Source: Limnomonas spitsbergensis
Lineage: Eukaryota > Chlorophyta > Chlorophyceae > Chlamydomonadales
NCBI GenBank assembly: GCA_037349105.1
Contig: JAYJMM010000110.1
Span: forward strand, 1,488,001-1,552,000
Reading direction: 5' to 3'
Length of the DNA: 64,000 bases
Shown: positions 14,354 to 44,022 of the stretch, piece by piece
Layout: each line of letters opens with the position of its first letter
How positions within the stretch are numbered: the first letter of the stretch is position 1
Notes under the pieces: model-generated
What the model saw: the letters and a program-made list of their open reading frames with translations, nothing else
Told to the model about the DNA's origin: nothing
The model's database searches: none
Program-made: the position numbers and the translations under genes

Positions 14354-17300
14354 GAGGAGGCGCCCTCCAGCCACAGCCCGGTACTCAGCTCCTGGCAGCA
14401 GATGCATCGGCAGCAGACGGGCCCCGGCGGGAACGCACCGCCCATCTCCTGGCAGCCGTCGCAGCCGCAGCAGGCGGGCCATGATGAGAATGTATCTCCC
14501 AGTCGCTGGCAGCTGCTGCGAGGCCGAGTGTCTCTGACCGGGGACCTCAACCTCGCAGCTCTCGCGGTGACAAACGCAGAGCTGTCCCCGGTGCGCAGGG
14601 ATTTCTCCAGGGTGGTGCATCATCTACAACTCAGCTACAATTCAGCTACACGTCAGCTACAGTCACGTCAGCTGTTTTCCTCACAGGGTAGCTGAAGCTT
14701 GCAGCCCTTGTGGCCGGGAAGGTATTTCGGTCCTTGGTGATCAATTTGGTTCAGCTTGGTTCAGCTTCGATTCAGCTTAAGTTTCCGTTCAGCTACCATT
14801 CAGCTTCCATTCAGCTACCATTAAGCTACCATTAAGCTACAACACACTTGGGGGGGCTGAAGCTTGCAGCCCACGTGGCCGGAAAAGTAATGCTGTAACG
14901 GGGACTTTGGTGATCTGACTGTGCTGTTCACAGTGTTCAGTTCAGCGTGCTTCAGCTACAATTCAGCTTCAATTCAGCTACTTCATCTTCAGCACACGGG
15001 GAGACCCGCAAGTTCAGTTCAGCTACCTAACATGGCCTGCAGGCCCTGAGGCCTTAAGCAGCAAGCCCTGCCGCTCGGCTGCCCAGTGGCCTTCCAAAGG
15101 TTGTGTGTGGTGCACATTAAAAGAAACGCTGGCACAAAGTTGGCCTGCATCTGGCCTGAACCCTTAACCTAGAATGCATCAAACCAAATCCAACCCAAGG
15201 CCTCTTTATCGTAAACCCTAAAACCCTAACCCTAAACAGTTTGATAGGTCGGAGCAGAGATAGATTGAGACTCAAGGGCGTCCTGTCCCTGCCTCTCAGC
15301 TCGATGCTCCGAGACCATGCACGTCCCCGGGATTCGCGGCCCCCCGATACCAGACTGCAGCGGGAGTGGGAGGCGTCGCCGCCACTGCGGCCGCCGGCGC
15401 GTGCGGAGGCGCGGCGGCACGGCGCCGCTTGTTCCGTGCCAGCAGCCGCATGTCCGCCGCCCAGTCCCTGGTGAGTCCCTCTCTGGGCTCCGAATCCTCC
15501 GGTCCTACATTTGAATGTGAGTGCCCAGCAAATTAGGCCCTTAATACTAAACCCTAAACCCTTAACCCTAAACTAGGTCTAATCATTGAGCTTGAGTGCT
15601 TAACAAATTGTTTTTTGCACTTACGTTGATTTGCATATCTGTTTTGACGCACGCGCCGCCAAAACACACAGCAAGCACGTTGCTACCTCCCACTGGTACT
15701 GGTGCGCATAACTTGGGAAAGGATTTAAATAAAATAGATTGAATAAAATCTGATTAGAGGATTCAAGTACCGGTGCAAGGGTGCAACTGAATGGATTTAA
15801 CTACCCTGTATGAGTGTATATTGTTTCGTTGCTTATAGCCTTGACCTGGACCCTAACCCTGACCCTCATTGGCTCCTGGCCCGAAAATCGAACCCCCGAT
15901 CCTTGTGTGCTAGTGGCTTAACCCAGAACCCCAACCCTGATCTTTGATCCCCGTGGCCGATGAGCCTAAACCGCCCCGACACGTCTGACGACTGTGCACA
16001 GCTACAATGCAAAACCTACACCAAACCCTCACCCCTACCGCCTCCACACACCTGCAGGTTGCGACCCGCCACGATAAATGCGATGCAAACCCTTGCCCAG
16101 ACCGCCACTCTAAAATCTTCACCAGCAAACCCGCACCAAGGGCCCCTCAACCCCCCACCAAGGGGTGCTCCCCGGCCCCCGCCGCGCCCCCCTGCCTTCC
16201 CCCCGACCGACGCTTCGGCTCGTCATTCCGTTTCTTCGTCTATTCAAACTTTTCCACACCAGTGCAAATTTTAAAAATATGGAAATCGTACTGGTATCAC
16301 AGTTCACCACTGCACCAGCGGATGCACAGATGTGATACCCCCCCCTCCCCTCCTCCCCCCTCCTCTACTGCTTCACCCCATCATCAGATTATGCCCAGCT
16401 ACGATGCAAATCTTACCCAGCCACCCACCCTCTATGCCTCGAACCTACTCAAGCTCATGTCCAGATACGACGCAAACGGGATGGGGAACCTGTTCTCTTT
16501 TGCAGACCTTACTCTAACTTTGTACGCATTAGTTATTGCGGCTGTGTGAGTGCTTGTTGGCCGCGTGCCTTTCCTGTCCCTGCTCGCCTTTCCTCAGCTG
16601 CCGACGAGGGCCACAAGCGCACCCGGGCTGTTCTTCTTTGTTTGCGTCTCAGGTTATTTCTAGCGCTGGGCGGCGGAACTCACACTTTGTAAAGTCCTAG
16701 CAAACGAAACCCTGAACAGGGTCTCTCCATTCATCAGGACTTCGACCAGTCATTGTCCAGTGCTGTGCCAATTATAGTCCTCACCGTGGCTGAATTACGT
16801 AGCTGAATTCCAGACAGAGTAATCTCAAGGCAAATTCAGCTACTCTACCGGTGAAGTACTGTGTTTACGTACACGGATTCTGAATTACGGCGCAATTGCG
16901 CAGCAGTGACTACGACACTACACCTTTGCCCTCACCCCCCTGCCTCAACCCTCCCCCAGATAGCGTACAGCTACAACTCAAACACTCACCCTCTACGCCT
17001 TCAGGTGATGTACACTCTGATGAACACCCACTATGCCTTCAGGCTATGTCACCCTCCTCCAGATTGTGGATAGCTTAAACCCAAACCCTCACTCTCTACG
17101 CCTTCACCCTGCACAGATTCTGTTTAGGGGCAATATAAACCCTAACCCAATCCATTACCCTATCTGCCTCAACCCTGATCCAGGTTCTGTACAGATGCGA
17201 TATAAACCCCAACCCACAAACCCTCGCCCTAACTGCCTCAACCCTGATCCAGGTTCTGTACATATGCGATATAAACCCTTACCCACAAACCCTCGCCCTA

Positions 17301-44022: not shown

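What the first reader, a model, noticed from the sequence alone, without database searches (positions are those of the whole stretch)
17112..42290. Splice-junction satellites: tandem arrays whose unit is the neighbouring exon end plus splice site
At 18682, 22683, 27027, 29972 and 33359 the array starts exactly at the exon's 5' splice site, and every unit repeats the last 8-57 exon bases with the donor (e.g. CTCATCAG|GTAGGCTGG, GCCGGACAACG|GTGCGGG, TAGAGCTGCAG|GTAGGG). At 17112 the unit copies the acceptor region instead. The GAGG tract after 42053 may be a sixth donor case. Ordinary intronic satellites have no reason to be in register with exon borders. This points to a duplication process anchored at exon-intron junctions, and it gives each intron dozens to about 180 decoy splice sites. 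I know of no description of such a system.
Basis: seen in the sequence. Interest (0 to 1): 0.9.

Follow-up and report, generated by a model that had tools for sequence, protein, structure and literature searches.

The report
Minisatellites copied across exon ends
In a green-alga-like genome full of short tandem repeats, several introns of one gene are filled with up to about 160 copies of the neighbouring exon's last bases plus its splice site; this looks like ordinary repeat expansion that crossed exon ends and was tolerated, and it offers a natural test of how cells choose among many near-identical splice sites.

Summary
The repeats are real. In a 12-exon stretch of one gene, the introns after 18681, 27026, 29971 and 33358 hold 9, 12, 93 and 161 copies of the exon end plus donor; the intron after 22682 holds decayed copies. 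The acceptor case (17112) repeats intron sequence only, and 42053 is a low-complexity tract with one weak copy. A gene finder that never saw the window recovers all 12 exon ends, 11 of 12 with arrays unmasked. Splicing at the first donors leaves 1,319 codons open; reading on into the four arrays tested meets a stop within 1-22 codons. The arrangement recurs elsewhere in the genome. A process anchored at junctions is only weakly supported: duplications cross donors and acceptors equally often (20 of 156 each), with no peak at the border. TRF arrays do cross donors more than uniform placement predicts (13 against 4.7; 7 against 2.8 outside this gene), acceptors not, but several of those cases are weak. 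Most likely: position-blind tandem duplication, filtered by selection and splicing polarity, helped by G-rich intron starts. One array (27027) reads as 12 in-frame mini-exons with mini-introns.

The parts
17599..18681 (+). exon ending CTGCAG (start ambiguous: 17584, 17595 or 17599)
   Evidence: gene finder, open frame
18672..19160 (+). donor-crossing array, about 40-bp unit, two blocks; 9 border-spanning copies, about 14 exon nt per copy
19435..19868 (+). exon 2 of the spliced model
20760..20853 (+). exon 3, followed by a GC-AG type donor (ATGCAG|GCAAGT)
21347..21478 (+). exon 4
22450..22598 (+). 80-bp x1.9 duplication crossing the acceptor of exon 5 (acceptor-side case)
22569..22682 (+). exon 5, ending CAGCAG
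22683..23520 (+). decayed copies of the exon 5 end plus donor (blocks 22694-22808 and 23197-23495)
23961..26761 (+). copies of the start of exon 6 with its acceptor region (23961, 26608, then 26762), with a 25-bp x102 array (24023-26571) between the first two
   Evidence: by eye
26762..27026 (+). exon 6, ending TAGCAG (gene finders start it at 26608)
26962..28484 (+). 113-bp x13.5 array; 12 copies form an in-frame 57/54-nt mini-exon, separated by 56/58-nt mini-introns
28779..29971 (+). exon 7 (donor at 29972 or 29978, both in phase; start differs between models)
29961..32933 (+). about 32-bp array, 93 border-spanning copies, 11 exon nt each
33273..33358 (+). exon 8, ending CATCAG
33351..40643 (+). 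40-bp x182 array, 161 border-spanning copies, 8 exon nt each; most copies read GG|GT instead of AG|GT
40920..42874 (+). exons 9-12: 40920-41109, 41423-41572, 42000-42053, 42713-42874
42048..42233 (+). GAGG low-complexity tract after exon 11; not a clear array of the exon end
17133..17538 (+). 69-bp x5.9 array in the intron before exon 1; a degenerate copy reaches the acceptor region, no exon sequence is repeated (by eye)

Best explanation
These are intronic minisatellites whose founding tandem duplication happened to cross an exon end. The genome makes short tandem duplications everywhere. In exons they are mostly removed by selection; in introns they persist and grow. A duplication across a donor leaves the original donor upstream of every copy, so the mRNA stays correct as long as the first donor is used, and the copies can then expand freely inside the intron. 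At an acceptor the extra copies come first and are more likely to disturb splicing. G-rich intron starts probably make donors somewhat more prone to array growth. Shown: anatomy, open frame, recurrence, equal duplication rate at both borders, donor excess for TRF arrays. Inferred: use of the first donor, the splicing filter, the G-run contribution.
For: Copies and their borders; exon ends recovered without input from the window, 12 of 12; the frame stays open with the first donors, and stops come 1-22 codons into the four arrays tested; duplication rate rises from exon to intron with no border peak; donors and acceptors equal for any duplication, 20 of 156 each; 7-26% of each 50-114 kb chunk is tandem repeat; donor-crossing arrays in other genes, one inside a PLAT domain match and two of the four CAGGTRGG arrays whose flanks I fetched; crossed donors are followed by more G, mean 0.44 against 0.30 (12 and 168 introns, P 0.004).
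Against: Uniform placement alone underpredicts donor-crossing arrays (13 against 4.7; 7 against 2.8 outside the gene), so something may favour donors. The G content was measured on introns that already hold arrays, so cause and effect are not separated. If acceptor copies were strongly selected against, fewer than the expected number should be seen; 4 against 4.7 does not show that. No RNA data.
Confidence: 0.65

Rival explanations
1. A duplication process anchored at 5' splice sites (for example co-transcriptional R-loops or G-quadruplexes at G-rich intron starts, copied by replication slippage) creates the arrays.
For: Donor excess for arrays and clustering of left edges at donors, not acceptors; arrays starting within 100 bp of donors have GC skew +0.34 (28 arrays) against -0.10 for arrays away from both ends; tandem CAGGTRGG x3 matches 17,107 times genome-wide against 2,147 for the reversed motif, with 40 against 13 single sites outside arrays in the 264-kb sample.
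Against: No peak of duplication at the border; equal rates at acceptors; the region of the 33359 array has GC skew near zero or slightly negative; long arrays contribute many motif matches each; matched-composition controls did not complete (CAGGTGAG; CTGGARGG).
Confidence: 0.2
2. The arrays are tandem cassette exons: each unit is an exon copy with its own acceptor and donor.
For: The 27027 array: 12 copies, each 57 or 54 nt, in frame and stop-free, separated by 56/58-nt GT-AG introns; exon part 2 of 57 columns variable (11 full-length copies), intron part 6 of 56 (10 introns of 56 nt); the only exon indel is -3. Unmasked gene finders call all 12 copies exons, also the one that never saw the window.
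Against: The largest array has almost no usable acceptor (1 of 378 AG sites reaches the weakest tenth of acceptors), and the four arrays tested meet stops when read through. The difference in variability is small and was not tested for significance. Introns this short are rare here: 5 of 225 are 60 nt or less.
Confidence: 0.3
3. The introns themselves were born by tandem duplication of an AGGT-containing exon segment.
For: Donors and acceptors are both CAG|G-like; published mechanism (PMC3443670, passages read).
Against: Donor and acceptor contexts of the same intron are not more alike than those of different introns (4 of 180 at 14/30 identity or more, 11.9 expected; 2 against 2.0 at 16/30); the only strong case is an 87-bp repeat that is probably coding.
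Confidence: 0.05
4. The exon borders are wrong and the arrays are ordinary intronic satellites.
For: No Pfam match for 964 of the 1,319 residues and no homologue for the 231 residues searched; one donor ambiguous (29972/29978); exon starts less certain than ends; the spliced model was edited by hand.
Against: A model without input from the window recovers 12 of 12 exon ends, phase-consistent open frame; an independent case crosses a PLAT domain match.
Confidence: 0.05

Closest known systems
Intronic tandem repeats of green algae enriched near intron ends (PMC3887541; passages including abstract text, and one section read)
   Same: Chlamydomonas reinhardtii and Volvox carteri have their highest tandem-repeat density in introns, with more repeats toward both intron ends
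   Different: In the passages I read the study does not describe units that carry the exon end and the donor, nor arrays of a hundred or more such copies
Intron gain by tandem genomic duplication (PMC3443670 passages; PMC2891723 abstract)
   Same: Tandem duplication involving AG|GT sites
   Different: There both intron ends derive from the duplicated segment; here only the donor end is in register
Tandem duplicated (cassette) exons (recalled)
   Same: 27027 array: exon plus intron copied head to tail, in frame
   Different: Fits one of the arrays only; no RNA evidence
Duplicated-donor splicing competition experiments (recalled, not looked up)
   Same: Several identical 5' splice sites compete for one acceptor
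   Different: Here a natural locus has up to about 160 copies

Membership tests
Intronic minisatellite | head-to-tail units of about 10-100 bp, high identity, inside an intron | tested here: met
   the 113-bp unit is slightly above the range
Intronic minisatellite | copy number varies between alleles or individuals | not testable with these tools
   one assembly only
Intron gain by tandem duplication (AGGT) | donor and acceptor of the intron lie in copies of the same unit | tested here: not met
   no excess of own donor/acceptor similarity; the one strong case is probably a coding repeat
Introner-like mobile introns | same intron sequence dispersed in many genes | tested here: inconclusive
   only the 18500-19100 stretch was searched genome-wide: itself, the neighbouring block and six weak matches (73-77%)
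Recursive splicing ratchet points | usable AG acceptor directly before GT in the units | tested here: not met
   for the largest array: 1 of 378 AG sites reaches the weakest tenth of acceptors; most copies read GG|GT. Other arrays hold some usable AGs (4 of 17, 23 of 98, 41 of 157, 10 of 183)
Tandem cassette exons (27027 array) | each copy in frame, stop-free, with acceptor and donor | tested here: met
   12 of 13 copies; the last lacks the donor
Tandem cassette exons (27027 array) | copies present in mRNA | not testable with these tools
   no RNA data

The most novel reading that the evidence does not exclude
In this lineage 5' splice sites are preferred starting points of minisatellite growth: G-rich, co-transcriptionally exposed intron starts repeatedly copy the exon end plus donor, giving (by extrapolation) hundreds of introns genome-wide with arrays of decoy donors that the spliceosome ignores because the first donor is committed first, and now and then turning the array into a run of in-frame cassette exons, as at 27027.
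Probability: 0.2. Interest if true: 0.72.

Novelty: new variant of a known kind. Interest (0 to 1): 0.47.

Why it matters
The locus is a natural experiment on 5' splice-site choice: one intron offers 25 further donors with the same nine-base context as the real one and 154 reasonable ones, and an open protein frame needs the first. It also shows a route by which tandem duplication across an exon end lengthens introns many-fold without touching the protein and, if copies also carry an acceptor, could create repeat proteins through tandem exons. It shows too that gene finders can over-call exons in such genomes.

Tried and rejected
Intron birth by tandem duplication: tested, no excess. Recursive splicing: the largest array lacks acceptors. 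Homology support for the focal protein: none found (Pfam scan of 964 of the 1,319 residues; protein search scored on residues 730-960 of those 964, with only the 7,992 candidates sharing most words scored); a genome search with the 225-residue C-terminal part matched only the locus itself, four places, so no paralogue to compare. PDB match for the PLAT protein: none. The first gene-finder run over-predicted exons and was replaced. Rows dropped: the spliced focal model leaves out two exons that the models place among array copies (23059/23071-23219, 23549-23593/23638), starts exon 6 at 26762 instead of 26608 and shortens two others. Three predicted introns lying wholly inside arrays (units 66, 87 and 66 bp, all multiples of 3, probably coding repeats) were dropped from the array counts. 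They were not removed, where two of them appear among the hits on both the donor and the acceptor side (the third is under the 120-nt limit used there). In one search the gene finder, run with a relaxed gene penalty and no mask, ended a predicted exon at a CAGGTRGG site in all four fetched stretches; I count only L030 and L031 as clear because their exons read as coding by eye. Motif-triple counts: a reversed-motif control came; better controls (CAGGTGAG, CTGGARGG) did not complete. Literature: ten searches; three of them listed nothing; in the others no listed title or abstract start describes units that carry an exon end and donor, but I saw only listings for most papers and the library lacks most subscription journals.

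Full report
Setting. The window is G000:C110:1488001-1552000 of an unnamed 260-Mb assembly in 124 contigs. An alpha-tubulin gene whose best solved match is chain 6u42_2 (that this entry is Chlamydomonas axoneme is recalled), a histone pair recognised by eye, TTTAGGG-like motifs and base composition suggest a chlorophyte alga; this is inference. Tandem repeats cover 26% of the window plus its 50-kb right flank and 7-14% of three 50-kb stretches of contig C119, so the background of duplication is high.

Observation. TRF finds the arrays. Aligning each exon end plus 20 intron bases to its own intron gives 9, 3, 12, 93 and 161 copies that span the border for donors 18682, 22683, 27027, 29972 and 33359, one for 42054, none for the four other donors examined, and none in one block-shuffled version of each intron. 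The unit carries about 14, 41, 57, 11 and 8 exon bases. The arrays thus cross the donor; they do not start exactly at it. At 17112 only intron sequence is repeated (by eye); the GAGG tract at 42053 is not a clear case. Duplications across acceptors also occur in the gene (22450-22598; exon-start copies at 23961 and 26608).

Exon borders. I wrote a gene finder (codon model, splice-site matrices, phase-consistent Viterbi) and trained it on 264 kb, seeded with focal exons. Retrained on C119 from those labels it gives 11 of 12 exon ends, with 29977 in place of 29971 (10 of 12 unmasked), and 7 of 12 starts. Rebuilt without any input from the window (20 long ORFs of C119, textbook splice matrices, six training rounds) it gives 12 of 12 exon ends, 11 of 12 with arrays unmasked, and 8 of 12 starts. 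Splicing at the first donors gives 1,319 codons without a stop, after I edited the model by hand (two predicted exons made of array copies left out, three exons trimmed); reading on from donors 18682, 27027, 29972 and 33359 meets a stop after 18, 22, 6 and 1 codons. The parts searched have no Pfam match or homologue, so borders rest on frame and composition; RNA is missing.

Recurrence. At C119:3037410-3038621 (minus) a 67-bp x12 array carries 16 exon bases, and the spliced protein has a PLAT domain match at residues 74-177 of the piece scanned, which covers the junction after residue 141. Of four arrays at the top of a genome-wide motif list whose 5' flanks I fetched, two are clear donor-crossing arrays (L030: unit of 44 exon bases plus GTAG; L031: 41-bp unit) and two are not clear. 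The four were chosen by a donor-like motif, so this is not a random sample.

Is the border special? Counting any junction-spanning duplication in the intron's own sequence: 20 of 156 donors and 20 of 156 acceptors at score 30 or more (13 and 17 at 38; 9 and 7 at 60), against 0.17 and 0 in other introns. By position, the donor-side rate is 2-6% in the exon at 20 nt and more from the border, 9% at -10, 7% at the border, 6% at +10, 11% at +20 and 12-21% from +60 inward; the acceptor side is similar but lower (7% at the border, 10-13% from 60 nt into the intron inward), and neither has a peak. In the focal gene alone the donor figure is 5 of 16 at the border and 10 of 16 at +20. For TRF arrays, however, donors are crossed 13 times against 4.7 expected under uniform placement of the founding unit (87 arrays, 225 introns, 304 kb; P 0.0004), 7 against 2.8 outside the focal gene (P 0.018), and acceptors 4 against 4.7. 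Left edges lie within 20 bp of donors 15 times against 5.5, right edges near acceptors 6 times. These counts contain weak members: 23220 (exon later dropped) and 42054 in the focal gene; outside it four arrays of about two copies, one only 63% alike and one GGT-rich tract. How arrays are masked during gene prediction changes the counts: non-focal edges within 20 bp of donor/acceptor are 5/2 unmasked, 7/4 with edge units kept and 12/8 fully masked. An added 40-kb stretch had 45 introns and only two intronic arrays, one crossing a donor in the GGT-rich tract. So there is a mild donor bias for arrays, not a sharp anchoring of duplication.

Mechanism. Duplication seems position-blind; exonic ones are lost. 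At a donor the original site stays first, so commitment to the first transcribed donor keeps the mRNA intact and the array can grow. At an acceptor the extra copies come first. In addition intron starts are G-rich (GC skew +0.16 in the first 100 nt, -0.13 in the last 100), and crossed donors more so. These two steps are inferred. The decoys are not systematically weak: in the 33359 array 154 of 169 GT sites reach the weakest tenth of predicted donors and 25 equal the real one, although most copies changed AG|GT to GG|GT; in the 27027 array 11 copies equal or exceed the real donor; in the 22683 intron none does.

A special case. The 113-bp unit at 27027 contains 57 exon bases and 56 intron bases, with an acceptor just before the copied exon tail. 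All 12 complete copies are in frame and open, with one 3-base deletion in the exon part and one 2-base insertion in the intron part; variable columns are 2 of 57 against 6 of 56. Gene finders run without masking call all 12 as exons. This array may therefore be a run of cassette exons instead of decoys. The difference in variability is small and RNA is needed.

Known work. Green algae are reported to have most tandem repeats in introns, enriched towards intron ends (PMC3887541, passages and one section read). Intron gain through AGGT tandem duplication is known (PMC3443670, passages; PMC2891723, abstract) but its signature is absent here. No title or abstract start in my search listings describes donor-carrying arrays of this size (searches listed nothing); this is a limited library.

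Noticed in passing
window 56811-60963: Large inverted arrangement: a 25-bp array, a 14-bp array, an 18-bp array and a near-identical ORF (56928-57302 plus, 60397-60771 minus) recur in mirror order, like the arms of a long palindrome or a transposon's inverted repeats.
   Followed up: no
window 23961-26761: Three copies of the start of one exon with its acceptor region; a 25-bp x102 array sits between the first two, an array nested inside an exon-start duplication.
   Followed up: partly
window 20854: Predicted GC-AG intron (ATGCAG|GCAAGT).
   Followed up: no
window 21656-22044: AGAA x78 microsatellite directly followed by GCCAT x15, inside an intron of the focal gene.
   Followed up: no
window 2353-3108: ORF that looks reverse-transcriptase-like by eye (retroelement); not searched.
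   Followed up: no
L030 940-1240 (sense orientation, minus strand of C3): An upstream exon in the same stretch also seems to have decayed copies of its end plus donor in the following intron (by eye).
   Followed up: partly
window 63951-64000 and right flank: A 150-bp x9 array starts at the window's end and runs about 1.3 kb into the flank.
   Followed up: no
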